The position numbers and the translations under genes were made by a program. Below are positions 21,393 through 55,100 of a stretch of DNA of 64,000 bases, piece by piece. Location of the stretch: positions 124,001-188,000 of the forward strand of contig VGGR01000001.1 of NCBI GenBank assembly GCA_016868585.1, in the 5' to 3' direction. Under the pieces are notes generated by a model that did no database searches, was not told the origin of the DNA, and saw nothing but the letters and a program-made list of their open reading frames with translations. Position 1 is the first letter of the stretch; each line of letters opens with the position of its first letter. The DNA is from Bacteroidota bacterium. GTDB lineage: Bacteria > Bacteroidota > Bacteroidia > Chitinophagales > Chitinophagaceae.

Positions 21393-22436
21393 TTATTTAC
21401 CTAACTGTTTGATTATCAATAAGTAAGTTGGAAAGTGATCGCTGTAGCCACCCCGGTAGCTATTTCCATCCCAGGTTCGCATGGGATAACCTTTATAGGG
21501 TCCTTTGTTTTCGACCAGGAATTCTTCATTAAATATCTGGGGCTGATATAAAAAGAAACCGTTTTGTTCTTTGTCTAGCCAGGACTTTGAAACAATTATT
21601 TGATCAAAAAGTCCCCAGGCATCCTGGTAAGCCAAAGTGCCAAAACCCTTTTTGTAGAGGTCCAACCAGGGATTGAATAAGGTACCTTGTTGATGTAGCT
21701 GGTCTTTATCCACTGCTCTCAGCACTTTTTCTACACTTTTATTGATTGGGTCATCGTTGAGGTCTCCCATGACAATAATCTTTGCCTCTGGCTCCTTTAA
21801 CAGAATGCTGTCAATGTGTTTTCGGCATACAGTGGCAGCTGCAATTCTTCCTGGTTCACTTCTTTTTTCACCTCCACTTCTGCTTGGCCAATGGTTCACA
21901 TACACGTGAATGGTTTCAGCAATCAATTTTCCTTTGACCCATAGTATGTCTCGGGTGTAATAAGCATCTTTTGAGCCTGCGGGTAGGGAAACAAATAACT
22001 TGTCGCTGGAAAGCACAGAAAAATAACTTGGGTTGTAAAGTAACCCCACATCCACCCCACGGGCGTCCTTGGAGTCGTAGTGAACGTACTGATAGTTTCT
22101 TTTTTGAATCAGCGGCTCTTTAACAAGGTCATTGAGGACTGTGTCGTTCTCAATTTCAGCTATACCCAGGAGGGCAGGACCATCGGGAGTATGTGCAGTA
22201 CCAATTTGTGCAATTACAGCGGCTAATTTAGTGAGTTTATCTCTGTAAATGGCGGTATTATAATTTCTGATTCCTGAAGGCAGAAATTCCTCATCATTGA
22301 TTGACGTGTTATCTGTGGTGTCAAATAAATTCTCCAAATTATAAAACCCTATAATCGCTGACTTGTATTGTTTTTTTTGGGCGTTTAAGGACAAGCAGGT
22401 AATGGAAATTGCCAGCACAAGCAGGTGTTTTTGCAT
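21393..22436 (-). CDS. secreted endonuclease/exonuclease/phosphatase (DNase I-like) family protein
   Basis: 347 residues with an N-terminal signal peptide (about 1-19, ending LSLNA). DNase I-like fold with the expected active-site set: Asn33/Glu35 in FYNLENLF, Glu in LLGIAEIEN, His in NHWPSRSGG, Asp/Asn in VMGDLNDDP, and the terminal Asp-His in YSDHFPTY. The family hydrolyses phosphodiester or phosphomonoester bonds (DNA, RNA, inositol phosphates, sphingomyelin); the N-terminal FYNLENLFD and NHWPSR patterns are those of the Bacteroidota group related to the catalytic domain of extracellular nucleases. Divergent from the TonB receptor operon (135 bp apart), which also encodes DUF5689 and lamin-tail proteins. 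Exported to periplasm or surface; substrate not proven. Confidence 0.88.
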   Translation of the reverse strand: MQKHLLVLAISITCLSLNAQKKQYKSAIIGFYNLENLFDTTDNTSINDEEFLPSGIRNYNTAIYRDKLTKLAAVIAQIGTAHTPDGPALLGIAEIENDTVLNDLVKEPLIQKRNYQYVHYDSKDARGVDVGLLYNPSYFSVLSSDKLFVSLPAGSKDAYYTRDILWVKGKLIAETIHVYVNHWPSRSGGEKRSEPGRIAAATVCRKHIDSILLKEPEAKIIVMGDLNDDPINKSVEKVLRAVDKDQLHQQGTLFNPWLDLYKKGFGTLAYQDAWGLFDQIIVSKSWLDKEQNGFFLYQPQIFNEEFLVENKGPYKGYPMRTWDGNSYRGGYSDHFPTYLLIIKQLGK

Positions 22437-22541
22437 GGGAAGATCTAAGAGGCCATAAAACTAAACATTATTGGTACTGCTCTGTAAAAATTTATCTTTA
22501 AAATGTGTTTAATTTTTAATGTTCTTTATATGTTCAGGCAA

Positions 22542-22549
22542 TAACTTCG
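22542..22549 (+). promoter_or_regulatory. -7 promoter element of the TonB receptor operon
   Basis: TAACTTCG (TAnnTTcG) 22 nt before ATG 22572. No clear TTTG at the expected upstream distance. The other side of this 135-bp divergent region has TAGTTTTA on the - strand (22463-22456) 19 nt before the nuclease ATG, a weaker candidate. Confidence 0.4.
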
Positions 22550-22571
22550 TTCCACCATTAAACTACATTGC

Positions 22572-25163
22572 ATGCGTATTGTGGTCTTATTCTTATTCCT
22601 GCTCTGTTTTCAACTTACTTCAATTGCACAACCTGACTCCACGGCTAGTAAAGACACCGCGATCCTGGATGAGGTAAAAGATGCTTTGTTGGATAATATT
22701 CCAACCATTACTTTGGATGAGGGAGATATAGGCAATGCAGGCGGGCAAAATGTTTCTTCGTTGCTTACTGCAGGGCGAGACCCATTTTTCTCAGCGGCCT
22801 CATTCAATTTCAGTGCGGTTCGTTTCAGGATACGCGGGTATGAAAATGATCATTTCAGTACTTTTTTGAATGGGATCCCCATGGATAATTTGGATAATGG
22901 GTTTACTCCTTTTGGTTTGTGGGGCGGTTTGAATGATGTGATGCGTAACCGGGATATCTCCTGGGGTTTACGCACCAATACTTTCACGTTCGGCGATATT
23001 GGGGGTAACACAAATATTGATGCGCGCGCCAGCAAACAGCGTGCACAAACACAATTTAGTTACGCGGCCTCTAATCGCAATTACAATAACCGTATTATGC
23101 TCACGCACGCAACGGGCCTAAGTAAAAAGGGTTGGGCTTTTGCGCTAAGTGGAAGCCGCAGATGGGCTGAGGAAGGGTATGTGCCGGGCACTTATTATGA
23201 TGGCTGGGCTTTTTTTGCAGGCATCGATAAAAAAATTAATCGACGCCACCTGCTTTCGTTCACTGTGTTTGATGCACCTACTGAAAATGGCAGACAAGGT
23301 GCTTCTGTGCAAGAAATGATAGACCTGGCAGGAACTTCTTACTATAACCCCAATTGGGGATATCAAAATGGCAAAAAGCGCAATGTAAGCATAGGAAGAA
23401 CACATCAACCTGTAGCCATTTTTAACCACGAGTTTACGATCAGGAATAATACCAGCCTGACCACGGCATTGAGCATTTCAACGGGCAATCGTTCAGTTAC
23501 AGGATTTGATTGGTACAATGCGGCAGATCCAAGACCGGATTATTATCGCTATTTACCCAGTTATACCGGCATATGGTCCAGCTCTCCTGATAAAGCGCAG
23601 GCAGATCGACTTGCTGCACTTATGCGGTCACACATTAATCTTCGCCAAATTAACTGGTCACGTCTTTATAATGTGAATGGCGCTAGCTATACCACTATTA
23701 AAGATGCAAATGGTATCATAGGCAATGATATTAGCGGGAATCGTTCCCGGTATATTATCGAGAACCGCATTATCACTACCACACGATTCAATTTCAATAG
23801 TGTATTAAATTCTCGCGTTGGTGATCACTTAGATTTGACCGTTGGCGTTTCTTATCAGACACAGCAAAATCATTATTTCAAAAAAGTTGAGGATCTGTTG
23901 GGAGGAGATTTTTATGTAAATGTGAACCAATTTGCTGAACGTGATTTTGGCGTGGGCAACGGAGTGAATCAATTTGATGTAGATAGACCCAATAGAATTT
24001 TAAAAGCAGGAGATCGTTTTGGGTATGACTATAATTTGAATATTTCACGTGCAGCTTCTTGGGCGCAGGGGGTATTTAAATTTAACAAGCTCGATTTTTT
24101 CCTGGCCGGCAATCTGTATGCCACTTCTTTCTATCGTCAGGGGAATGTTCGTAATGGGATTTTTCCCAATGAGTCTCTTGGAAAAGGTACCACTAATAAT
24201 TTCTTAGACTATGCAGGAAAAGCGGGTGTAACCTACAAAATCAATGGACGTAATTATGTAACGGTAAACGGCGCCTATTTAACTCGCGCTCCATATTTCG
24301 AGAATGTATACATTTCCCCGCGCACGCGCAACGCGCAACAAACTGACTTGCAAAGTGAGAAGATTCTGTCAGGAGAAGTTGCCTATATGCTTAATGCTCC
24401 CAAGATAAAGGCAAGGATCGGAGGCTACTATACACAATTTAAAAAAGGAATGGACATCATGGTTTTCTATCATGACTTCTATCAGAATTTTGTCAACTAT
24501 GCAATTCGTGGAATAGACCGTTTGCATTTTGGTGGCGAATTTGGAGTAGAAGTAAAGCTGTCTCCTACCTTAACGCTCAATGCCGCTGCCGCCGTTGGGC
24601 GTTATTACTTTGATAGCCGTCAACAAGCCGTAATAACCGTTGATAATAATGCGGCAATACTCGGCAGAGATATCATTTACATGGAAAACTTCAAGGTTCC
24701 TTCCACTCCCATGGATGCCCATAGCGTTTCCTTGAATTACCGGTCTCCCAAATTTTGGTTCGTTAGTTTAATGGGTAGTTATTTCGATCAATCCTATTTG
24801 AGCATGAATCCGCTCAGGCGTACATGGGATGCGCTTCAATATTTAACACCTGGTTCCGCTGACTATAAAGCTGTTTTTGATCAAACAAAATTTGATGCGC
24901 AGTACACTATAGATTTTTTTGGTGGATACTCTTGGAAATTACCCAAAACCTATGAAGTAAACAGCAAATCTACTTTCCTGGTATTGAATGTGGGAATTAA
25001 TAATCTGTTGAATAATAAAAAAATTATTACTGGCGGATTTGAACAACTTCGCTTTGATCAACAATTGATTGCGGCTGACCCTGTTGAAGTTGGCAAGTTT
25101 CCTCCTCGTTTGTTTTATGCGTACGGATTAAACTTTTTTGCTAGTGCTACTCTTCGTTTTTAA
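22572..25163 (+). CDS. TonB-dependent outer membrane receptor
   Basis: 863 residues. Signal peptide about 1-19 (ending TSIA), short linker, plug domain (about 45-190: FRIRGYENDHFSTFLNGIPMDNLDNG), then a 22-strand-type beta-barrel ending in the aromatic-terminal strand FFASATLRF. It lacks the N-terminal CarboxypepD_reg domain of SusC-type receptors and there is no SusD partner, so it is not a glycan-utilisation SusCD pair. Imports a ligand using TonB energy; the ligand is unknown. First gene of a four-gene operon: 3, 10 and 13 bp separate it and the following genes, which encode surface lipoproteins and a T9SS cargo. The divergent DNase I-like enzyme is probably part of the same system (inference). 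Confidence 0.92.
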   Translation: MRIVVLFLFLLCFQLTSIAQPDSTASKDTAILDEVKDALLDNIPTITLDEGDIGNAGGQNVSSLLTAGRDPFFSAASFNFSAVRFRIRGYENDHFSTFLNGIPMDNLDNGFTPFGLWGGLNDVMRNRDISWGLRTNTFTFGDIGGNTNIDARASKQRAQTQFSYAASNRNYNNRIMLTHATGLSKKGWAFALSGSRRWAEEGYVPGTYYDGWAFFAGIDKKINRRHLLSFTVFDAPTENGRQGASVQEMIDLAGTSYYNPNWGYQNGKKRNVSIGRTHQPVAIFNHEFTIRNNTSLTTALSISTGNRSVTGFDWYNAADPRPDYYRYLPSYTGIWSSSPDKAQADRLAALMRSHINLRQINWSRLYNVNGASYTTIKDANGIIGNDISGNRSRYIIENRIITTTRFNFNSVLNSRVGDHLDLTVGVSYQTQQNHYFKKVEDLLGGDFYVNVNQFAERDFGVGNGVNQFDVDRPNRILKAGDRFGYDYNLNISRAASWAQGVFKFNKLDFFLAGNLYATSFYRQGNVRNGIFPNESLGKGTTNNFLDYAGKAGVTYKINGRNYVTVNGAYLTRAPYFENVYISPRTRNAQQTDLQSEKILSGEVAYMLNAPKIKARIGGYYTQFKKGMDIMVFYHDFYQNFVNYAIRGIDRLHFGGEFGVEVKLSPTLTLNAAAAVGRYYFDSRQQAVITVDNNAAILGRDIIYMENFKVPSTPMDAHSVSLNYRSPKFWFVSLMGSYFDQSYLSMNPLRRTWDALQYLTPGSADYKAVFDQTKFDAQYTIDFFGGYSWKLPKTYEVNSKSTFLVLNVGINNLLNNKKIITGGFEQLRFDQQLIAADPVEVGKFPPRLFYAYGLNFFASATLRF

Positions 25164-25166
25164 TAC

Positions 25167-25922
25167 ATGAATCAACGATTAACTATGTCAGTGCCAATAA
25201 AAAAATCATTGCTTCCCCTCTGGCTCCTTTGGTTTGCTACTACAGTAGTTTCCTGCGATAAACAACCCATTGGTCCAGCGGGTCCTGACCCCATTGTTCC
25301 CAGTCCGGCCAGCGAATTGATGAAAATTGCTGATTTCCGTGCCCTGTATTCCGGCACCGGAACAGTGCTAGTACCTACGGGAACTAAAAAGATCAGGGGA
25401 GTGGTTATATCCAATAGTGCAAACGAAGCAGTTGGGAACTTTAGATTGCAGGATGAAAATGGGGGTGGAATTTACCTTTACACGGTTGTGGGTTCACCCG
25501 TATATCCTATTGGGTCGGTGCTGGAAATTGATGCGGCAGGCGTTGGACAGTTACTACTTTACAATGGTGATCTGGAATTAAAGAGTGTACCCATGGACAA
25601 AATTGTTATAGTACCACTCACACTTTCTATTACTCCTCGCCTAACAACCTGCGCTGAAATAATTGCTAACCGAAATACTTGGGCCTCTACATTGGTCAAG
25701 ATTAACAACTTAACCAATATTACACAGTCTTCCACCAACAGCACCGGGGCTACGTATACCATAACTGATGCTACAGGGAGTTTAACCCTTTTTGTAAGGA
25801 CTGCAGCCGCTATTACTGTTAACACGGCTGGTCGCTCGATCACCGGATATGTTTCTATCTATAAAACAACAACGCAGGATGCTACACAAATTGGCATTCG
25901 AAGTGCAGCTGATATACAATAA
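25167..25922 (+). CDS. DUF5689-domain lipoprotein (single domain)
   Basis: 251 residues. Lipoprotein signal with lipobox VVSC (Cys30). One DUF5689 module (about 50-250): IADFRALYSG, then RGVVISN, FRLQDENGGGIYLY, PIGSVLEIDAAG and LLYNGDLEL. The order G-V-V / Q-D-x-x-G-G-I / G-x-x-L / Y-N-G strongly recalls the OB-fold domains of secreted nucleases such as YhcR, in which the OB fold binds nucleic acid; that relation is my inference from pattern. A likely surface or periplasmic binding partner of the receptor three bases upstream. Confidence 0.8.
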   Translation: MNQRLTMSVPIKKSLLPLWLLWFATTVVSCDKQPIGPAGPDPIVPSPASELMKIADFRALYSGTGTVLVPTGTKKIRGVVISNSANEAVGNFRLQDENGGGIYLYTVVGSPVYPIGSVLEIDAAGVGQLLLYNGDLELKSVPMDKIVIVPLTLSITPRLTTCAEIIANRNTWASTLVKINNLTNITQSSTNSTGATYTITDATGSLTLFVRTAAAITVNTAGRSITGYVSIYKTTTQDATQIGIRSAADIQ

Positions 25923-25932
25923 ATACTTGCCC

Positions 25933-28050
25933 ATGTTAAGCGTAAAATATTCGATCTTGTCTGTAGTAGGGGCTGCCTTAGTGGTTTTTAGTGTGCTTGC
26001 CTGTAAAAAAAGTTACGACCAACCTGCTCCCGAAGGTGAACCTGGCTCAGTAGCCACTATCAGTATCAAAGATTTAAAAACCAGGTATACTGCGGGTGCA
26101 GCAATAGGCATTACAGACGATCATGTTATTGAAGGAGTGGTTGCCTGTGATGACCGTAGCGGAAATTATTATCAGCAGATTGCAGTTCAAGATGCAACAG
26201 GTGGAATTTTGTTGCGCTTGGGAAGCGCCAATCTATTTAATAGATACCCGGTCGGACGAAAATTATTCATCAAAGTAAAAGGATTGTACCTGGGCCAGTA
26301 TAATGGCACACTTCAATTGGGTGGAGGAATTGACTCTGCCTATTTAAGCCAGGGAGGAGTTACCTTGTTAGCCTATAATTTATTTGATGAGCATCTAATC
26401 AAAGGAGCGTTAAATCAAACAATTGTTCCACTTGAAGTTTCGGCCACGCAGCTTACTACTACCCTGCAAGATCGCTATATCAGTACCTTGATCCGTCTTA
26501 AGGATATGGAATTTGCTGTGACCGATACGGGAAAATCATTTGCTGATGCGGGGCAGTCTGGTAATAGAATTATACAGGGTTGTTCGGCTCCTTCGGCAAA
26601 CCGGATAACATTACGCACCAGTAACTATTCAAATTTTGCTGATGTGAAAGTGCCTGGAGGCAATGGATCAATTGTTGGGGTGTATTCCTATTTTGGCTCT
26701 ACTCGCCAATTAACAATCCGAGACACGGCAGATGTACGGTTTAATTCCTCTCGATGTGGAACGGGCCCTACTACATTACTTCCTATTGCTGAACTTCGCT
26801 CACAGTATAATGGCAGTACCCTGTTTGCGCCCAACAATAAAAGAATTACGGGTGTTGTTATCAGCGATAGAGCTACCAGTAATCTGAATGCGCAGAATAT
26901 TTACTTACAACAGGGTGCGGGGTTGGCTGGTATTTGTGTTCGTTTTTCCAGTGCTCATACTTTTGATCTGGGTGATTCAATAGATATCAATGTGTCGGGG
27001 CAGGAGTTATCTGAGTTTAATGGTTTGCTTCAATTAAATAATGTTCCACTTGGTTATGCCACGCGTGTTTCTACCGGAAAATCGATCATGCCGCGTACAG
27101 TAACTTTTGCTGCTATTCAAACCAATTTCAGGACATGGGAATCTACCTTGGTGAAAATTATTAACATTACCTCCTTGGTTGGTGGTACTGCTGGACGTTG
27201 GGGCGGTAGTGTAACGATGACTGATGCAACAGGTACGCTTATTGCGTTTACTTCCACAACTGCTTCATTTGCCAATAATAGTTTTCCAAGTACGGCAGAC
27301 TCCTTTGTTGGTTACCTGACACCTTTTAATACAGTAAAGCAAATATCTTTTCGTGGTTTGTCTGATGTAGTTGCCGGAGCAGGTCCGCCACCCGGTCCTA
27401 GTGGAATACCTTTGACCAGTTCGCCCTATATTCAAAATTTTGATGGAATCGCAACGGGATTGCTGCAGGGTATTTCTGTAAAAATTGGAGCTACTGCTAC
27501 TTCCCTTGGCACGGGGGATATGCCTTTTTATCCCGCTACTGGTTTAGGTAGTCCAACGGCCTGGAATCAGACCAGTGCGGGTTTGAAAAATTTTGCTTCT
27601 TTTACAGGTATGACAGCTAGCAGTAATGCTGCTGAGCAAGGCGCGCATGCCAACCGCGCTTTGGGAATCCGTCAGACCAGTGCCGTAGGGTATGATCCAG
27701 GTGCTGCCTATGTGTTTTTGTTAGATAATACTACGGGCAAAGCAAATTTTCAACTTAGTTTTTTACTGCAATCATTAGATGCAACACCAGGTGGTCGAAC
27801 AACCACTTGGCGTGTAGAATATGGTTTGGGTGACAACCCTTCAAGTTTTACTGCAGTTACTACTAGCCCTACAACACTCGCTACGAATTTGGGGACTTTT
27901 AGCAGTACGCCAGTTACAGTAAGTTTCGGTACGGCTTTGAATAACTCAAATCAGAAAATTTGGATTCGCATAGTTACTCTATCTGCCACCACCGGGAGTG
28001 GTAACCGCCCCTCTTCTGCAATCGATGATGTTCAATTGTCTTGGAATTAA
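25933..28050 (+). CDS. large lipoprotein with two DUF5689 domains and a C-terminal beta domain
   Basis: 705 residues from ATG 25933; upstream in-frame codons overlap the previous gene. Lipobox VLAC (Cys24). First DUF5689 module about 43-280 (SIKDLKTRYTAG, EGVVACDD, AVQDATGGILLRL, YNGTLQLGG); second about 285-490 (IAELRSQYNGS, TGVVISD, IYLQQGAGLAGICVRF, FNGLLQL); then a Gly/Pro linker and a C-terminal beta-rich domain (about 500-705) beginning SSPYIQNFDGI and ending IDDVQLSWN, a pattern seen in Bacteroidota secreted esterase/nuclease-associated proteins. With the previous gene the operon carries three DUF5689 copies that look OB-fold-like. Surface-exposed lipoprotein likely; ligand unknown. 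Confidence 0.8.
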   Translation: MLSVKYSILSVVGAALVVFSVLACKKSYDQPAPEGEPGSVATISIKDLKTRYTAGAAIGITDDHVIEGVVACDDRSGNYYQQIAVQDATGGILLRLGSANLFNRYPVGRKLFIKVKGLYLGQYNGTLQLGGGIDSAYLSQGGVTLLAYNLFDEHLIKGALNQTIVPLEVSATQLTTTLQDRYISTLIRLKDMEFAVTDTGKSFADAGQSGNRIIQGCSAPSANRITLRTSNYSNFADVKVPGGNGSIVGVYSYFGSTRQLTIRDTADVRFNSSRCGTGPTTLLPIAELRSQYNGSTLFAPNNKRITGVVISDRATSNLNAQNIYLQQGAGLAGICVRFSSAHTFDLGDSIDINVSGQELSEFNGLLQLNNVPLGYATRVSTGKSIMPRTVTFAAIQTNFRTWESTLVKIINITSLVGGTAGRWGGSVTMTDATGTLIAFTSTTASFANNSFPSTADSFVGYLTPFNTVKQISFRGLSDVVAGAGPPPGPSGIPLTSSPYIQNFDGIATGLLQGISVKIGATATSLGTGDMPFYPATGLGSPTAWNQTSAGLKNFASFTGMTASSNAAEQGAHANRALGIRQTSAVGYDPGAAYVFLLDNTTGKANFQLSFLLQSLDATPGGRTTTWRVEYGLGDNPSSFTAVTTSPTTLATNLGTFSSTPVTVSFGTALNNSNQKIWIRIVTLSATTGSGNRPSSAIDDVQLSWN

Positions 28051-28063
28051 TAAAAATGATTTT

Positions 28064-31000
28064 ATGAAGAAGCTCCTCTTTTTAATTCTTTGGTTTTGTT
28101 GTGCGTATGCACATTCTCAAACGGTTGTAATAAGTCAGGTGTATGGTGGTGGAGGCAATACCGGTGCAACCTATAATCAGGATTTTGTTGAGCTCTTTAA
28201 TGCCTCATCTGCCTCTGTTGATATTAGTGGGTGGAGTATTCAATACGCTTCTGCAACCGGTCCCTCAGGTACTGGCAACTGGGCAGTTGCGGCAATTCCA
28301 GCAAACACCACGCTTGCTGGAGGTAAATATTTTTTGATTGCGTTGGCTACCGGTTCAACAGGTAATGCATTACCCACTCCCGATTTAACAAATACTACCA
28401 TCAATTTAAGTGGAACAACTGGTAAAATTGCGTTGGTCAATAACGGCACTGCACTTAACGGAACAACTGCCTGCTCTGCCTCATCTGTTGTTGATGTTTT
28501 GGGTTATGGGGCAAGCCCTACTTGTAGTGAAACTAGCCCATTTACAGCCTCAGGAATTGATAACACCAAGTCAATGTTCAGAAAAAATGGGGGCTGTCTG
28601 GATGCAAATAATAACAGTACTGATTTTGAGTTATTATCAGTTTCACCAAGAAACAGTGCAACAGCTCCAAATTCTTGCAGTACCGCTTCTCCCTCATTGA
28701 CTATTGCTGCTTATACTGCATTCTCCAGCACAACCGTGGGTACTACCTCTGCCTCACAAGCTGCAAATCTTTCTGGTGCTAATCTCACTGGGGCTCCGGG
28801 AACTATTACTGTTACCTCCTCTTCTACTGATTTTGAAGTTTCTTCCAACAACTCTATTTGGGGGGCTAGTGCAACCATTGCTTATAGTGCTGCTACATTG
28901 GCTGCCACTCCTGTTTATGTTCGATTCAAACCGCAAGCAGTTGGAGCAAGATCTGGTAACCTGAATTTTTCAGGCGGTGGTGCAACTACAAGTACTGCTT
29001 TGTCCGGTACGGGTGTTGCAATTACTGCACCAGTAGCCACTGCAGGTACAGCTGTTAGTGGAACTGGATTCACGGCCAATTGGAATGCCGTGACGGGTGC
29101 AGCTGGCTATTACCTGGATGTTTATTCTCAATCAACTGGACAAGTAACCAGCATATTGGCTGGGTGGAATTTTACCACAGCCGCTGCTATCGCCCAAACT
29201 GCTGATGCGGGAAATGCAAATAATATTTCAATTCAAACCTTAACTCCTCAGGGATTTACAGGCAACACCATTTCTTGGCCTGGAGGTCCTACAGTAACTA
29301 CCGGGGCAAATCCATATGCTGTTTCTACTAATGGGTGGGATAACGGCGCAGATACCAAGTACTGGATTGCTGATGTAAACACTACCGGTGCAACTTCAAT
29401 TACTGTTTCCTCATTACAGGGTTCCTCCAATACCGGACCCAAAGACTTCAAGCTTCAATACCGAGTGGGTACCAGTGGTACCTGGACTGATGTAATGGGT
29501 GGCACTGTATCATTAACCACCGCTGTGATTGCGGGTAACGTTTCTACTTGGGGTGCGCTTACTGATGTAGCCTTACCGGCTGATGCAGCAAATAAACCAC
29601 TGGTCTCTGTCCGGTGGTTACAAACCAGCAACAATAGTGTAGGGGGTGCAACGGTTGCGTCCGGGGGTACCAGCCGAATATCTGCTGTTTATGTGAAAGG
29701 GAGTACAACGGGGACTGTAAATAATTACATCCTTCAAAATCAAAATGTGGGTAATGTTACGTCTTATGGGGTTACCGGGTTAACAGCTGGGGCAACTTAT
29801 TACTATGTGGTAAGGGCTATAGCGGGTGGTGTTACCTCTGTAAATTCCAATGAGATTGCCGTGACAACCAGTTCCAGTACGCCTACAATTACTCCAAGTA
29901 CCTTGACTGCATTTGGAAATGTGTGCATTAATACCACAGCAGGTCCTCACTCATTTACGATTACTGGAACAAATTTAACTAGTGGCAATTTGGCAGTGGC
30001 CTCATTGACCGGCTTCAGTTATGCTACCGCTGCTAACGGAACTTACGCTGGTTCATTATCTATTCCTGTAACTGGTGGCTCTCTTTCGCAGGAGGTTTTT
30101 GTAAAATTCAATCCCACTGCAGTTCAATCTTACAATGGCAACATTTCACTAACGGGTGCGGGGTTAAGTGCAGCTGTTACGGTGGCAGCAGCCGGAGCAG
30201 GAGTGAATACACCTGCAACCACTACAACGGGAGCTGCCAGTTCCGTGACGCAAACTTCTGCAACAGTAGCAGGAACAATTACCGCTATCGGATGTAGTAC
30301 TGTTTCTGCTTATGGAATTGAATATAGCACAACAAATGGATTTACAAATGGGACTGGCACAAGGGTGGCCTCTTCAAACTTAGCTAGCGGAAACTTCAGT
30401 GTTGCGTTAAGTGGATTGAGTGCAGCGGCCATCTACTATTACAAAGCCTATGCAACCAATAGTGGGGGTACTTCCTATGGGGGTCAACAATCTTTCACCA
30501 CGGCGGCTCCTCCTCCTGCACAATTAACAATATCTGCGCTGGCCCCATTTGGAGAGGTTTGCGTGGGGGCCATTGGTGGCCCCAACTCGTTCACTATATT
30601 GGGTACTAACCTGACCAATCAATCAATTTCAGTGGGGCCATTGGCTGGGTTCACATTTAGTCAAACGTCCGGCGGTTCTTATAGCGATGTTGTTGGACTA
30701 TCCCATTCGGGAGGCACGCAGTCTTTGACAGTATATGTACGTTTTGTTCCTACTGCTGTTCAAACTTACACAGGATCTATCCCGGTGAGTGGGGGCGGAA
30801 CTACAGCAAGTATTGTAGCAACCGGCACTGGCGTCAATACCCCGCCTTCGATAACAACAGGAACTGCATCGGCTATTACCACAAGTGCCGCTACATTGGC
30901 CAGTTTGTTTGGAAGCGGAGGATGTACCATGCCTTCTGGTTATGGAGTTGAATACAGTACTATTAATGGGTTTGCAAACGGAACAGGAACCCGTGTGGCT

Positions 31001-31405
31001 GCAACAGTAAATACCAATGGAAATTTTACAGTTTCCCTTTCCGGGTTGCAACAGGGAACTACCTATTACTTTAAAGGGTATGTAACTGCTGCGGGTGCCA
31101 TCAGTTACGGAGCGCAACAGAACTTCACCACACTTCGAATTGGTGATGGATTTAAGCTATTCCCAAGTCCGGCAGAGCGCGGTGTAGTAATCCGTATTAC
31201 ACATTCTTCTCTCACAGCGGGTAACTATACATTGCTATTATACAGTCAACAAGGACAATGTGTTTGGCAAAAACAATTAAATGTTCAGGGAACGTATATC
31301 AATGAATTCATCTCCTTGCCTGCCAATCTAGCATTTGGAATTTATCGAGTTGTATTGGCTAAGGAAAGTATACGGGTAGGGGTTCAACAACTAGTAATTC
31401 AATAG
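28064..31405 (+). CDS. lamin-tail-domain, T9SS type A-sorted secreted protein
   Basis: 1113 residues from ATG 28064. Signal peptide (about 1-19, ending AHS). Lamin tail domain about 20-165 (VVISQVYGGGGNTGAT, DFVELFNAS, ISGWSIQY, KYFLIAL). Then an Ig/ASH-like module (about 205-325), a fibronectin III-like module containing a long insert (about 330-600), a tandem pair of about 210-residue ASH+Fn3 units (about 606-818 and 819-1024), and a C-terminal T9SS type A sorting domain (about 1026-1113: FKLFPSPAERG ... GIYRVVLAKE ... QQLVIQ) that directs export through the SprA translocon. In ExeM-like extracellular nucleases a lamin tail domain precedes OB-fold and catalytic domains; here no catalytic domain is on the same chain. 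Last gene of the operon. Confidence 0.88.
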   Translation: MKKLLFLILWFCCAYAHSQTVVISQVYGGGGNTGATYNQDFVELFNASSASVDISGWSIQYASATGPSGTGNWAVAAIPANTTLAGGKYFLIALATGSTGNALPTPDLTNTTINLSGTTGKIALVNNGTALNGTTACSASSVVDVLGYGASPTCSETSPFTASGIDNTKSMFRKNGGCLDANNNSTDFELLSVSPRNSATAPNSCSTASPSLTIAAYTAFSSTTVGTTSASQAANLSGANLTGAPGTITVTSSSTDFEVSSNNSIWGASATIAYSAATLAATPVYVRFKPQAVGARSGNLNFSGGGATTSTALSGTGVAITAPVATAGTAVSGTGFTANWNAVTGAAGYYLDVYSQSTGQVTSILAGWNFTTAAAIAQTADAGNANNISIQTLTPQGFTGNTISWPGGPTVTTGANPYAVSTNGWDNGADTKYWIADVNTTGATSITVSSLQGSSNTGPKDFKLQYRVGTSGTWTDVMGGTVSLTTAVIAGNVSTWGALTDVALPADAANKPLVSVRWLQTSNNSVGGATVASGGTSRISAVYVKGSTTGTVNNYILQNQNVGNVTSYGVTGLTAGATYYYVVRAIAGGVTSVNSNEIAVTTSSSTPTITPSTLTAFGNVCINTTAGPHSFTITGTNLTSGNLAVASLTGFSYATAANGTYAGSLSIPVTGGSLSQEVFVKFNPTAVQSYNGNISLTGAGLSAAVTVAAAGAGVNTPATTTTGAASSVTQTSATVAGTITAIGCSTVSAYGIEYSTTNGFTNGTGTRVASSNLASGNFSVALSGLSAAAIYYYKAYATNSGGTSYGGQQSFTTAAPPPAQLTISALAPFGEVCVGAIGGPNSFTILGTNLTNQSISVGPLAGFTFSQTSGGSYSDVVGLSHSGGTQSLTVYVRFVPTAVQTYTGSIPVSGGGTTASIVATGTGVNTPPSITTGTASAITTSAATLASLFGSGGCTMPSGYGVEYSTINGFANGTGTRVAATVNTNGNFTVSLSGLQQGTTYYFKGYVTAAGAISYGAQQNFTTLRIGDGFKLFPSPAERGVVIRITHSSLTAGNYTLLLYSQQGQCVWQKQLNVQGTYINEFISLPANLAFGIYRVVLAKESIRVGVQQLVIQ
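29879..31131 (+). repeat. internal tandem duplication of an about 630-bp ASH+Fn3 unit
   Basis: Two adjacent coding units, about 29879-30517 and 30518-31131. Shared landmarks in order: LTAFGNVCINTTAGPHSF / LAPFGEVCVGAIGGPNSF; FVKFNPTAVQSYNG / YVRFVPTAVQTYTG; GIEYSTTNGFTNGTGTRVA / GVEYSTINGFANGTGTRVA; SYGGQQSFTT / SYGAQQNFTT. Diverged enough not to be a recent copy. Confidence 0.85.
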
Positions 31406-49095: not shown

Positions 49096-49144
49096 ATCGC
49101 CCAAACTAACCTTTCGAGAAAGATTGAACTGCGTTTTTGCAAAT

Positions 49145-52100
49145 ATGGGACGGCATTTTTTGTCGATGGTCCTTTCCTTGATGTCATTTTCTGTAAGCGG
49201 AGCAGGATTCTTTGTTGCTCAATCGGACACCATTCGATTCCCTCTCGTTGATCGTTATGGGAGCTATTACACGGCAGGTCGCTCACATTCCTTCGATTTG
49301 CGCGATACCGGATTTATCCGACGCCGGATTGAATACGATCCACTTACAAGGCAATATACCGTGAGTGAACAGATCGGGGATCGTGCATATCGGGCTCCGG
49401 CTACTTTTTCAATGAGTGAGTTTCTGCGATTACAAGCCAGACAGGATGAGAATGAATATTTCCGCAGAAGAGCTGCGATGTTGACCACCATGAATCGCAA
49501 ACCCAAAGGACCTCAATTTCGAGTGAACAATGATTGGTTCAATCGGATTATGGGAGTGGGGCCTGATGGAAAAGTACGCATTGAAGTGAAACCTGCCGGG
49601 TATGTTGATTTTTTAGCGGGTTATCAAGGACAAAACATCAAGAACCCTACTTTACCAGAGCGCGCAAGAAGGAACGGAGGATTAGATTTTAATATGAACT
49701 CCCAATTGCAAATGGATGCGCAAATAGGAGAAAAATTAAAGCTTCCGATCAACTACAACACATTAGCCAATTTCAATTTTGACAATCAACTGAAGTTGGA
49801 CTTTAAGGGGAAGGATGATGATATTGTCAAGCAATTTGAGGCAGGTAACACCAGTTTTGCTTCAAAAGGCACATTGATACCGGGTGCACAATCTTTATTT
49901 GGAGTCAAGACGCAATTACAATTTGGAAAACTTTTTGTAACTACTGTATTGGCTAACCAACGATCACAGCGACAGACCATGGGCGTTCAAGGGGGTACTA
50001 CTGCACAACGTTTTAGTTTGAAGGCAGACGAGTATGACGAGAATCGGCATTTCTTAATGGCACAGTATTTCCGTTCCAATTACAATACGGCTATGAAAAA
50101 ATTGCCTGTTGTCAATTCAAAGGTTCAAATACTGCGAATGGAAGTATGGGTAACCAACCGAAATGGAACCACTACGGACATTCGGGATGTGATAGCTTTT
50201 ATGGATCTGGGCGAACGGAGACCTTACAACCCCACACTTTCTGCAGGGGGTAATGAGCTTCCGCGAAACGATGCGAATAATTTATATGGCTTACTGATTG
50301 GTAATTCCGCCTATCGTAATTCTTCTCAAGCGCAAAGCGCATTGGCGGCTTTGGGGCTGACCCCTGTTCAGGATTTTGAAAAAACATTCGCCAGAAAATT
50401 ACAACCTGCAGAGTACTATTTCAATCCTCAAATTGGATTTGTTTCACTGAATCAACCCTTGCAGCCGGATGAAGTGTTAGGTGTTGCATTTCAATACACC
50501 TACAATGGAAAGGTATTCCAGGTGGGTGAATTTTCGCAGGATGTGCCGCCTGATACAACCGGGAATGCACAACGTGTGCTTTTTTTGAAATTATTAAAAG
50601 CTACTTCACAAAGAACACAGCTTCCTATTTGGGACTTGATGATGAAGAATGTTTACTCCGTGGGATTTGGTCAACTGGAAAGACAGGATTTTAGTCTGGA
50701 CCTTTTATATGAGGAACCCAGTTTAGGGGAAAAACGTTATCTCCCACCCACGCATGTGGTTGACCCTTATAAAGGGATGCCTATCATTGCACAGGTAAAC
50801 TTAGATCGGCTGAATAATCAGAACGATCCTCAGCCTGATGGAGTATTTGACTTTATTGAAGGGTTTACGGTGATCTCCTCTCAAAGTCGAATAATTTTTC
50901 CGGTATTAGAGCCATTCGGGCATGATCTGGATTACTTATATAGCGACCAAACAATGCGCAATAAGTATTTGTATTATCCTTTGTACGATACTATCAAAGC
51001 CATTGCGCAGACCTATGCCAACTTAAATCGTTTTAGGATATCCGGACGTTCGCGTTCAGCAGGCTTTGGAACTGGCGCTAACGGATCTGGCGGAGGCATA
51101 CCAGGGCAAGGAGGTGCCAGCGAGTATCAATTAGGGTATAACATACCCAGGGGATCGGTTACTGTAACTGCTGGTGGACAACAACTGATTGAGAATGTTG
51201 ATTATGAAATCAACTATGATCTTGGAACCTTACGAGTGGTCAATCAAGCTATCATCAATTCGGGTGTACCGGTTAACATCAATTATGAAAACAATCAGGC
51301 ATTTGGTTTTCAGCAACGAAATTTTATAGGGGTTCGATTGGATTATTTAGCCAATAAACGTTTGTCACTTGGTGGTACCATTGTGCGACTAGGTGAACGT
51401 CCCTTTTTCATCAAGCAATCCTATGGAGAAGATCCCATAAGAAATACCATGTTTGGACTGGATCTTGATTACCGTAACGATCTTCCCCGACTAACAAAAT
51501 TGATAGACCGTTTACCCTTTTATTCCTCCAAAGCTAATTCAACTATCACCACTTATGCAGAAGCAGCCATTCTGCAACCTGGGCATGCTAAGCAAATAAA
51601 TGGTACCAATTACGATGGTTCCAGACAAAACACCGGACAGGTTTATGTGGATGATTTCGAAGGGGCACGCGCTGCTATTGATCTTCGCTTTCCCTTACTC
51701 AGCTGGGCCTTAGCTTCAGTGCCACAAGGAAATGGGTTATTTCCAGAATCTTCGCTCAACAACGATTTGCGAAGCGGGCGAAACCGAGCCAAGTTGGCCT
51801 GGTATAATATTGAGCCAGTATTACAAGAAAAAAGAAACACCAATAATCCGATAAGTGATCTAAACGAACTTTCCGATCCACGCGTAAGACAAGTATTGCA
51901 ACGTGAAATATTTCCTCGCCGAAGCACACAGTTTGGTGAAGGCCTGTTGACCACCTTCGATATGGCTTTTTATCCAAGAGATAAAGGTCCTTACAACTAT
52001 GAAACAGATCCCAATCGCATGGATGCCAATGGCCGATTGAGAAATCCACGTAATGCCTGGGGCGGCTTAATCCGTAATATTGATCAAACCGATTTTGAAA

Positions 52101-55100
52101 CAGGAAATATTGAGTTCATTGAGTTTTGGTTGCAGGACCCTTTTTTAAACAACGCTACCAATCCATTTGGAGGACAACTTTATTTCAATCTGGGTAACAT
52201 CTCCGAAGATGTATTGAGAGATGGTAAGCGGCAATACGAAAACGGATTGGCCACGCCTACCAATAATGCCCGAGAGGATAGTTCAACCGTTTGGGGTAAA
52301 GTCCCTTCCATTCCTTTACAGTTGACAAATGCTTTCAGCAATACGCCATCTGACCGCGGATATCAGGATGTTGGGTTTGATGGATTAACCGATGAGGAGG
52401 AACAATTAAAATTCAAGGACTATCTTTCATTATTGCGAACTAATTTTGGAACAAGTTCTCCGGTTTATCAACTTGCCTTATTGGATCCATCGGGTGATAA
52501 TTTTAAACCGTATAGGGATCAACAATTTGATCAGGAGCGTGCGGGAATACTTAGGCGTTACAAGCATATTAATAATCCACACGGCAATTCTCCGATAGCC
52601 GGGAACAATTCGCAATTTGTAACCGCTTTCACTCAATATCCTGATGCGGAAGAACTCAATCGGGATAATACCATGAATGAAGCCGAGGAGTACTTTCAAT
52701 ATCGTGTGGATATCCTTCCAAACATGGGCGTTGGAACTAATTTTATTACGGACATACGCATGCCTACCGTCACATTGGCTAATGGACAAACCCGATCTGA
52801 GCGTTGGTATTTGTTCAGAATTCCGGTAGAACAATTTCAACAGAAGGTGGGCAATATCCCCGACTTCAAATCCATTCGGTTTATTCGAATGTTCATGACG
52901 GGTTTTCAAGATTCTATTGTGCTTCGTTTTGGAAAGCTTGAGTTAATTAGGAACCAATGGAGAAGGTTCCGCAATCGGCTTGACACTACGGGTAATTATA
53001 CTAACCTGCCTATTCCTGATCACGCAACGGTAAATATACTTTCGGTAAATGTGGAGGAGAACGACCAGCGACAACCTATAGTTTACAGGATTCCTCCGGG
53101 AATAGAACGTCAACAGCAGCTCAGCAATAACAATGTCCCTTTATTAATGAATGAACAGTCCATGAGCATGCAGGTTTGTGGATTACCCCAACATGAAGCC
53201 CGTGGGGTTTTTAAAACCATGAACATGGATATGCGTCAGTATGGGAAACTTGAGATGTTCATACACGCAGAATCAGTAGCTGGTGCTGAGCCCCTTCGTC
53301 CAGGAGATGTCAATGCGGTTATTCGAATAGGGAATGACTTCAATGGAAATTATTACGAAGTTAAAATACCGCTCAAGCGAACAGAATTTGGAGAGCGTGA
53401 TAGTGCTCGGATCTGGCCATTGGAAAATAATTTGGATCTGTCACTTCAGGATCTGATGGAATTAAAAATCCGAAGAAATCGGGCCGGAATTCAGCCCTCC
53501 CGTTATTATCGAGAAATACTCCCCAATGGCAGGAGCTATGCCATTATAGGAAACCCCAATCTGGGTGAGGTGCGCGGCGTTTTATTGGGTGTAGAGAATG
53601 TATTGCAGGAGGCGTTATGCGCAGAGGTTTGGTTCAATGAACTTCGTTTGCAGCAACTTGATGAAAAGGGTGGTTGGGCAGCACTGGCACGAACAGATGT
53701 TAAGTTAGCTGATCTGGGAACAGTTTCGGTTTCTGGTGCTGCAAGATCACGTGGGTTTGGAACGCTGGAACAACGGGTGAATGAAAGAAGCCGTGAGGAT
53801 GTATTTACGGCTGATGCATCTTTGACGATTGAAGCGGGTAAACTACTTCCTAAGCAGTGGGGAATTCAAATACCTGTATTTGCAAGTATTAGCCATCGAA
53901 GCAGTACGCCAGAGTACGATCCCTATGACCTTGACATAGACTTGAAACAAAAACTCAGAGAGACGCCCTCAGATAAAAAGGACTCCATCAAAAACGATGC
54001 GCAGGATATAACCACCATTAAAACAATCAATCTTACCAATGTCAAAAAGCTAAGACCCGATGGCAAGAAAATAATGCCTTGGAGCGTAAGCAATCTTGAC
54101 TTTTCTTACTCTTACATTCAAACACGTTCTCATAATCCGTTGATAGAACAGGATGAATTGAGACGGACTAGAGGAGTTGTTGGTTATACTTATGCCCCTC
54201 TGTCAAAGTCAGTTGAACCCTTCAAACGATTATTTAGATCCAACTCCAAATGGTTGTCGCTGATTCGGGATTTTAATTTTAATTACGCGCCTTCACAGAT
54301 TTCGGCACGGGCGGATGTGTTTCGTCAATTTGGCGCTACGCTACCGCGTAATGTGGGAGGGGGGCCATATAAGATCCCTGAAACTTATAATAAGTTTTTC
54401 ACATTTGACAGGTACTATGTAATGCAATGGAATTTGACGCGCTCATTGGCAATGGATTTTTCTGCTACCAATAATGCGCGTATTGATGAGCCGCCTGGCA
54501 GAATTGATAACAGCATAAAAAAAGATTCTATTCGTTCTAATTTTTTCCGTGGGGGAAGAACTACAAATTATCAACAGGATTTCACCCTTAATTATAATGT
54601 TCCCACTAATAAAATTCCATTGTTGGATTGGACCTCTCTCCGCGCAGGGTATAATTCAACATATAATTGGCTGGCTGCTTCTTTATTGGCAAGAGAACTA
54701 GGAAATAAACTTACAAATACACAAAAACGCACGCTGAATGGAGAACTGAAGTGGGAGGAGCTTTACAATAAGGATAAAACCATTCGTGCACTGCAGAATG
54801 GCATGGGAGCTGCCCGTAAAACAGGGGGGGCGCAAAAAAATGGAACACCAGATTCGCGAAAAGATAAAGTGCGTTCACAGACATCACGTGGCAGGGGTAA
54901 CGCGGACCAACGGAGGCCCACCCCGGATGCATTCGGCCAACGCGCCAATACTGCGGATACTACCCGGGATAATACCTATGTGGACGGTCGGCAAAAAGAG
55001 AAAGAGGTGGTTGCCCCTTCAGCCTTTGCGCCTACCACGCTGCGGTATCGATATGATACTATTCGCGCAAAAGATGGCACCATCAGTAAGATCAAAAAGC

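What the first reader, a model, noticed from the sequence alone, without database searches (positions are those of the whole stretch)
21393..31405. Split ExeM/YhcR-like locus: DNase I-like enzyme, DUF5689 lipoproteins and lamin-tail T9SS protein around a TonB receptor
Seen: a divergent pair with a secreted DNase I-like protein on one side and, on the other, a four-gene operon (gaps 3, 10, 13 bp) of TonB receptor, DUF5689 lipoprotein, larger double-DUF5689 lipoprotein and a lamin-tail T9SS-sorted protein. Known: extracellular nucleases such as ExeM and YhcR combine lamin tail and/or OB-fold nucleic-acid-binding domains with a DNase I-like or other nuclease domain in one chain. Inference: here the same parts are separate proteins at the cell surface, joined by an importer, so the locus may capture and degrade extracellular DNA or another phosphodiester and take up the products. 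There is no SusD and the receptor lacks the CarboxypepD_reg domain, so it is not a SusCD system.
Basis: partly seen in the sequence, partly recalled or inferred. Interest (0 to 1): 0.8.

Follow-up and report, generated by a model that had tools for sequence, protein, structure and literature searches.

The report
Likely DNA-uptake locus of Bacteroidota
This gene cluster is related to two genes that a duck bacterium needs to take up DNA, and it includes a DNA-cutting type of enzyme and surface proteins with a DNA-binding type of fold, so it may show how many Bacteroidota bring DNA through their outer membrane.

Summary
In detail: a DNase I-like gene lies divergent from a tight operon of TonB receptor, DUF5689 lipoprotein, double-DUF5689 lipoprotein and lamin-tail T9SS protein. 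The "split ExeM/YhcR" reading is only partly right: the lamin tail is not shared even by the same-genus relative, while nuclease, receptor and DUF5689 stay together across families. The receptor groups (100/100) with the receptor beside DUF5689 in Riemerella and was found in 90 of 395 genomes of the class. In Riemerella the order ComEC, two ORFs, nuclease, receptor, DUF5689 fits RA0C_RS04895 to RS04920. RS04915 and RS04920 are published as essential for natural transformation; RS04910 would be the nuclease, unstudied as far as searched. The first DUF5689 domain models as two OB folds, nearest to HIN-200, LysRS, MCM10 and MCM structures. The host has ComEC, DprA and a helix-hairpin-helix protein, and no secretin match. 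Most likely this is a TonB-powered outer-membrane DNA importer for transformation, perhaps also for scavenging. Against: ComEC is nearly universal (376 of 395) and so does not discriminate; many DUF5689 regions are acidic; the fold match is moderate; F. johnsoniae was not transformable in the published test; nothing has been assayed.

The parts
21393..22436 (-). DNase I-like (Exo_endo_phos_3, EEP superfamily) enzyme, 347 aa, Sec-type leader by eye; counterpart of the gene at the presumed place of RA0C_RS04910
   Evidence: PF19580 E 1.8e-115; 36% identity over 390 columns to the R. anatipestifer neighbour; N33, E94, H182, D225, N227, D333, H334 at least 97% conserved in 53 rows (their role in catalysis is recalled from the EEP superfamily)
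22437..22571 (.). 135 bp divergent intergenic region; promoter-like TTG-N19-TATCTTTA at 22471-22500 (+) (Bacteroidota consensus recalled)
   Evidence: read; pattern count in the window is not above chance: 2 found, 2.86 expected
22572..25163 (+). TonB-dependent receptor, 863 aa, 22 barrel strands by my count on the model, no CarboxypepD_reg; orthologue of the receptor at the presumed place of RA0C_RS04915
   Evidence: (one clade, 100/100)
25167..25922 (+). small DUF5689 lipoprotein, 251 aa, lipobox VVS-C
   Evidence: PF18942 E 2.1e-12; 32% identity to the same-genus counterpart; lipobox pattern
25933..28050 (+). large lipoprotein, 705 aa, two DUF5689 domains plus an unassigned C-terminal part, lipobox VLA-C; first DUF5689 domain (aa 41-275) modelled as two OB folds
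28064..31405 (+). 1113 aa lamin-tail / fn3 protein with weak T9SS sorting tail; last gene of the operon, its lamin tail lineage-specific

Best explanation
The locus encodes an outer-membrane DNA-uptake machine of the kind used in Riemerella natural transformation. Surface lipoproteins with tandem OB folds (DUF5689) catch extracellular DNA and hand it to a dedicated single-copy TonB-dependent receptor. The receptor moves the DNA across the outer membrane with TonB energy. In the periplasm, helix-hairpin-helix (ComEA-like) proteins hold it and ComEC passes one strand into the cell. The divergent DNase I-like enzyme, probably periplasmic, trims or degrades incoming DNA: it may be the missing enzyme that makes single strands, or a brake that turns excess DNA into nutrient. 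The lamin-tail T9SS protein is a lineage-specific surface accessory. Shown here or in print: gene order, orthology of the receptor, OB folds by model, presence of ComEC, DprA and HHH, and essentiality of two orthologues in R. anatipestifer. Inferred: DNA binding by DUF5689, DNA passage through the receptor, site and role of the nuclease, and that the window's organism is transformable.
For: (a) RA0C_RS04915 (outer-membrane protein with carboxypeptidase regulatory-like domain) and RS04920 (DUF5689): clean deletions fall below detection for transformation (PMC8459023). (b) The Riemerella locus has ComEC, two ORFs, PF19580 nuclease, receptor, DUF5689, which fits the tags RS04895-RS04920 (G557 locus L085; named R. 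anatipestifer CCUG25054, L123 = L086). DprA and the presumed RS02645 lie where the tag numbers predict. (c) Orthology: 30% identity over 883 columns, E 2e-127; 365 bits against 106 for the next receptor in G557; one clade with 100/100 support apart from 15 paralogues. (d) Conserved divergent nuclease / receptor / DUF5689 order. (e) Tandem OB folds; nearest solved structures are HIN-200 (Foldseek) and LysRS, MCM10, MCM and CST (VIA-align). (f) tonBA and tonBB mutants lower transformation (PMC8383284). (g) Host genome has ComEC, DprA and an HHH protein with a membrane anchor by eye, and no secretin match (17 of 20 receptor-bearing genomes that I chose lack one). (h) In three of four f52 loci fetched (the fourth, L114, was not scanned) the third gene is a PLD-type nuclease with its own DUF5689 and T9SS tail, which ties DUF5689 to a nuclease again.
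Confidence: 0.62

Rival explanations
1. Nutrient scavenging only: the lipoproteins catch extracellular DNA or RNA, the nuclease cuts it, and the receptor imports oligonucleotides or phosphate-rich fragments. Loss of transformation in Riemerella mutants is a by-product.
For: A nuclease is the usual neighbour; PLD-nuclease/DUF5689/T9SS proteins occur in the same operon in three f52 loci; transformation of R. columbina responds to phosphate and peptone (abstract); a review passage says that P. gingivalis may scavenge DNA as food.
Against: Each of the two Riemerella genes is as essential for transformation as ComEC, which needs long DNA to enter. The nuclease has no surface-sorting signal by eye, so it would act after import.
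Confidence: 0.22
2. The receptor and lipoproteins maintain the cell surface or import another nutrient (for example a metal complex or glycan); competence needs them indirectly, and the nuclease is a general phosphodiesterase.
For: The nearest solved receptors by fold are siderophore, metal and PQQ receptors; the DUF5689 surface is not basic; iron limitation lowers transformation (abstract); a gene of the M949_1556 family has been reported as an antigenicity and pathogenicity gene (review passage).
Against: Rank among TonB receptors says little on substrate. A tandem OB fold plus a recurring nuclease partner fits nucleic acid better.
Confidence: 0.12
3. Split ExeM/YhcR nuclease system: lamin tail, OB domain and nuclease divided over separate surface proteins that degrade DNA outside the cell.
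For: Lamin-tail and nuclease domains are in the window and DUF5689 models as OB folds.
Against: The lamin tail is not shared within the genus; the nuclease lacks a surface-sorting signal by eye; the receptor and DUF5689 are the constant parts.
Confidence: 0.04

Closest known systems
Riemerella anatipestifer transformation genes RA0C_RS04915 / RA0C_RS04920 (PMC8459023)
   Same: Orthologous receptor followed by a DUF5689 lipoprotein gene, same order, divergent PF19580 nuclease (at the presumed place of RS04910), ComEC, DprA and an HHH protein in the genome.
   Different: The window has an extra small DUF5689 lipoprotein, a second DUF5689 domain in the large one, a lamin-tail T9SS protein, no CarboxypepD_reg on the receptor and no DUF5017 hit. 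The paper names RS04910 once and does not discuss it; it says RS04915 homologues are widely distributed in Bacteroidetes in one sentence and only found in Flavobacteriaceae in another.
NCBIfam NF052645, M949_1556 family lipoprotein
   Same: The first DUF5689 region of the large lipoprotein matches it (E 2.4e-33); the single match in G557 is the gene beside the receptor.
   Different: The window protein scores 116 bits against a cut-off of 475, so it is not a member of that subfamily.
HIN-200 domains (IFI16, p204, p202)
   Same: Two OB folds in tandem (recalled for HIN-200); the six Foldseek matches with E <= 0.001 are five p204 or IFI16 HIN chains and 4qgu, whose title says only a protein domain with ssDNA.
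   Different: rmsd 7.5 A or more over both OBs, so the mutual placement differs or is badly modelled; TM-score by target at most 0.40 among these; identity about 10%; no shared function shown.
SusCD importers
   Same: TonB-dependent receptor plus surface-type lipoprotein in one operon.
   Different: No SusD; tandem-OB lipoprotein instead; one copy per genome at the threshold used; recurring nuclease partner.
ExeM / YhcR extracellular nucleases (recalled)
   Same: Lamin tail, OB and nuclease domain types.
   Different: Separate chains, lamin tail not conserved, nuclease probably periplasmic, receptor central.
Type IV pilus / secretin competence machines (recalled)
   Same: Would feed the same ComEA-like / ComEC / DprA pathway.
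   Different: No secretin match in the host genome or in the two Riemerella genomes searched, G557 and G571.

Membership tests
Riemerella-type transformation locus (RS04915/RS04920) | Receptor orthologous to that beside DUF5689 in Riemerella (taken as RS04915) | tested here: met
Riemerella-type transformation locus (RS04915/RS04920) | DUF5689 lipoprotein gene directly downstream on the same strand | tested here: met
   conserved in relatives
Riemerella-type transformation locus (RS04915/RS04920) | CarboxypepD_reg domain on the receptor (a described trait of RS04915, not shared by all orthologues) | tested here: not met
   no hit in the window; present in L123 and L051
Riemerella-type transformation locus (RS04915/RS04920) | DUF5017-type C-terminal domain on the DUF5689 protein | tested here: inconclusive
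   no hit in the window protein; 27 of 52 members of A2 match DUF5017 at E <= 1
Riemerella-type transformation locus (RS04915/RS04920) | ComEC, DprA and HHH protein in the genome | tested here: met
   not discriminating for ComEC
Riemerella-type transformation locus (RS04915/RS04920) | Genes needed for transformation of this organism | not testable with these tools
   published only for R. anatipestifer
SusCD | SusD-family lipoprotein beside the receptor | tested here: not met
   no SusD family among the Pfam hits of the operon proteins
ExeM/YhcR nucleases | Lamin tail/OB and nuclease domain in one chain | tested here: not met
   separate genes
OB fold (DUF5689) | OB-type barrels in the model, OB proteins as best matches | tested here: met
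   aa 41-275 only, the second DUF5689 domain was not modelled with confidence
HIN-200 | Same double-OB arrangement and sequence family | tested here: inconclusive
   rmsd 7.5 A or more, about 10% identity
EEP (DNase I-like) nuclease | Conserved N, E, H, D/N, D-H residues | tested here: met
   substrate not testable here
Secretin-based competence machine | PF00263 secretin | tested here: not met
   no match in G000 at E <= 0.001

The most novel reading that the evidence does not exclude
A TonB-dependent receptor that carries polymeric DNA across the outer membrane: a pilus- and secretin-free transformation pore general to many Bacteroidota, with a HIN-like tandem-OB lipoprotein as its DNA lid (in the place SusD takes for sugars) and a co-conserved DNase I-like enzyme that processes the strand.
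Probability: 0.42. Interest if true: 0.9.

Novelty: new variant of a known kind. Interest (0 to 1): 0.72.

Why it matters
How DNA crosses the outer membrane of Bacteroidota that lack a type IV pilus is, to my knowledge, open. The 2021 Riemerella paper offered a speculative receptor model. This work finds the same locus in 17 families of the class (21 counting fragments and one weak hit), adds a recurring nuclease partner that the paper did not discuss, gives DUF5689 a fold that fits nucleic-acid binding, and links the transformation gene to the M949_1556 antigen family. That makes the question directly testable with three proteins.

Tried and rejected
ComEC as a phylogenetic marker: nearly universal (376 of 395), no power. 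Viral contigs for relatives of the large lipoprotein: four pattern matches, none confirmed. Solved-structure sequence searches: none for the nuclease at E <= 0.1; the receptor profile matched only NOMO2 and an 85-residue SusC-homologue chain, both over its N-terminal positions 20-98; the DUF5689 profile matched only cystatins and other weak hits at E 0.04 and above, outside the OB region; the small DUF5689 protein one chance hit. Weak Pfam matches of single A2 members to families that I recall as OB folds (CcmE, DUF3221, NigD_N) were not used as proof. Repeat of the two DUF5689 halves by hhalign: not detected, so the two OB folds rest on the model alone. Uptake-sequence search in the window: nothing stands out. 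Promoter pattern: not above chance. Lamin tail as a core part: rejected. Of the 23 neighbour proteins scanned as third-gene candidates, 12 had a T9SS tail above cut-off; I chose them by length and place, so this is no random sample.

Papers: PMC8459023 abstract, Results and Discussion; PMC8383284 abstract and one section; PMC7965970 abstract and one section; PMC12566107 and PMC5907639 passages; all others as search listings. In the open-access library searched, DUF5689 is named in one paper and RA0C_RS04910 in one; searches on DNA uptake, TonB and Bacteroidetes gave no later mechanism paper among the rows listed. Subscription papers and preprints are not covered.

Full report
What is there. 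Two starts need care: the large lipoprotein most likely begins at the ATG at 25933 (a lipobox VLA-C follows) and the last gene at the ATG at 28064; the longer ORFs listed for both look like over-extensions.

Who its relatives are. The window lies in a 1.77 Mb genome (99% complete) whose DUF5689 matches all lie in this operon and whose one PF19580 match is this nuclease. A search with the receptor in 148 genomes of the phylum gave 21 other genomes with matches of 200 bits or more, against 107 bits or less for the remaining receptors (one further piece of the G107 receptor scores 156). Stretches around those 21 (L035-L055), around 15 weaker hits (L056-L070) and around 40 hits of the DUF5689 family NF052645 (L083-L122) were compared with the window's proteins. 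DUF5689 follows the receptor in 20 of 21 and 38 of 39 scorable loci, and the nuclease is the divergent neighbour in 14 of 21 and 33 of 39; in 57 scorable named loci the numbers are 57 and 56 (80 named loci were fetched, the others lack a whole receptor or enough upstream sequence). The second and third sets were chosen by DUF5689, so their DUF5689 counts are biased; the nuclease counts are not biased in that way, but the named set is mostly Flavobacterium. In three genomes without the neighbouring nuclease that were searched, one lies elsewhere (G021, G335, G037). Among the 15 weaker loci one (L056) has a nuclease three ORFs away.

How wide it is. A receptor profile (24 rows) finds 90 of 395 genomes of the class at E <= 1e-100, one match per genome except G489, which is split over two contigs, in 49 of 196 genera. 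The matches fall in 21 families; in four of these (f38, f65, f93, f99) they are fragments or one weak hit (G372, 359 bits).

The link to transformation. In PMC8459023 (abstract, Results and Discussion read) markerless deletion of RA0C_RS04915 or RA0C_RS04920 abolished natural transformation of R. anatipestifer. RS04915 is described with a carboxypeptidase regulatory-like domain, RS04920 with DUF5689. G557, a single contig of 2,164,087 bases (a length that I recall as that of ATCC 11845), has ComEC, two ORFs, nuclease, receptor, DUF5689 (L085), which fits tags RS04895 (ComEC in the paper), 04900, 04905, 04910, 04915, 04920. From there DprA (RS05130 in the paper) and the presumed HHH gene RS02645 lie at 1,064.9 kb and 528.2 kb, the distances expected from the tags at about 1.1 kb per gene. 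So RS04910 should be the nuclease; the paper names it once, as the upstream gene whose transcription did not change. This assignment is an inference from gene order, strong but not read from a record. G557 has one match to the M949_1556 lipoprotein family, and it is this DUF5689 gene, so the gene reported elsewhere for antigenicity and pathogenicity (review passage and cited title) is probably the same gene.

Orthology. The window receptor aligns to the L123 receptor over its whole length at 30%, has its best match in G557 there by 365 against 106 bits, and groups with 25 receptors from such loci in one clade with 100/100 support apart from 15 paralogues (41 rows, two of them identical). The nuclease is 36% identical and the first DUF5689 region 30%.

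Host pathway. ComEC, DprA and a 271-aa tandem-HHH protein with a membrane anchor by eye are present; no secretin match. The T9SS pore protein SprA is encoded in the window itself, so T9SS sorting of the last gene is plausible.

Third gene. It varies: 12 of 23 scanned candidates have a T9SS tail, among them three with PLD-type nuclease plus DUF5689. The lamin tail of the window is not shared by the same-genus relative.

Judgement. The best reading is a TonB-driven outer-membrane DNA importer serving transformation, possibly also nutrition (0.62). It rests on orthology to two experimentally essential genes plus fold and neighbourhood. The weak points are the lack of any biochemical test, the acidic make-up of many DUF5689 regions, the negative transformation test of F. 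johnsoniae, the moderate fold match, and the lack of discrimination by ComEC.

Noticed in passing
49124-56587 (+): 2487-aa SprA (T9SS pore/motility protein, PF14349 E 1e-166) with a TTG start in the ORF list.
   Followed up: partly
L096:11148-13376, L107:11156-13375, L121:10621-12834: In three f52 genomes the third operon gene is DUF5689 + PLD-type nuclease + T9SS tail in one chain, a fused relative of the parts seen here.
   Followed up: partly
G115 C3:48805-49411 (same-genus genome): DprA matches in two overlapping pieces, one with a stop inside: a broken gene or a sequencing error in a genome that keeps the uptake locus.
   Followed up: no
L127, L129, L133 and other Flavobacterium loci: A small (about 190-214 aa) protein, matched by the local DUF5689 profile in many, sits between receptor and main DUF5689 gene, like the window's 25167-25922 gene; the one scanned with Pfam (L127) gave no family.
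   Followed up: partly
L037:1705-3594, L118:7058-8974: An HSP90-like protein gene lies on the same strand just downstream of the operon in two relatives of the same family.
   Followed up: no
L119:10114-11733: Operon neighbour with a weak OB-fold nucleic-acid-binding (PF01336, E 0.0043, below cut-off) match.
   Followed up: no
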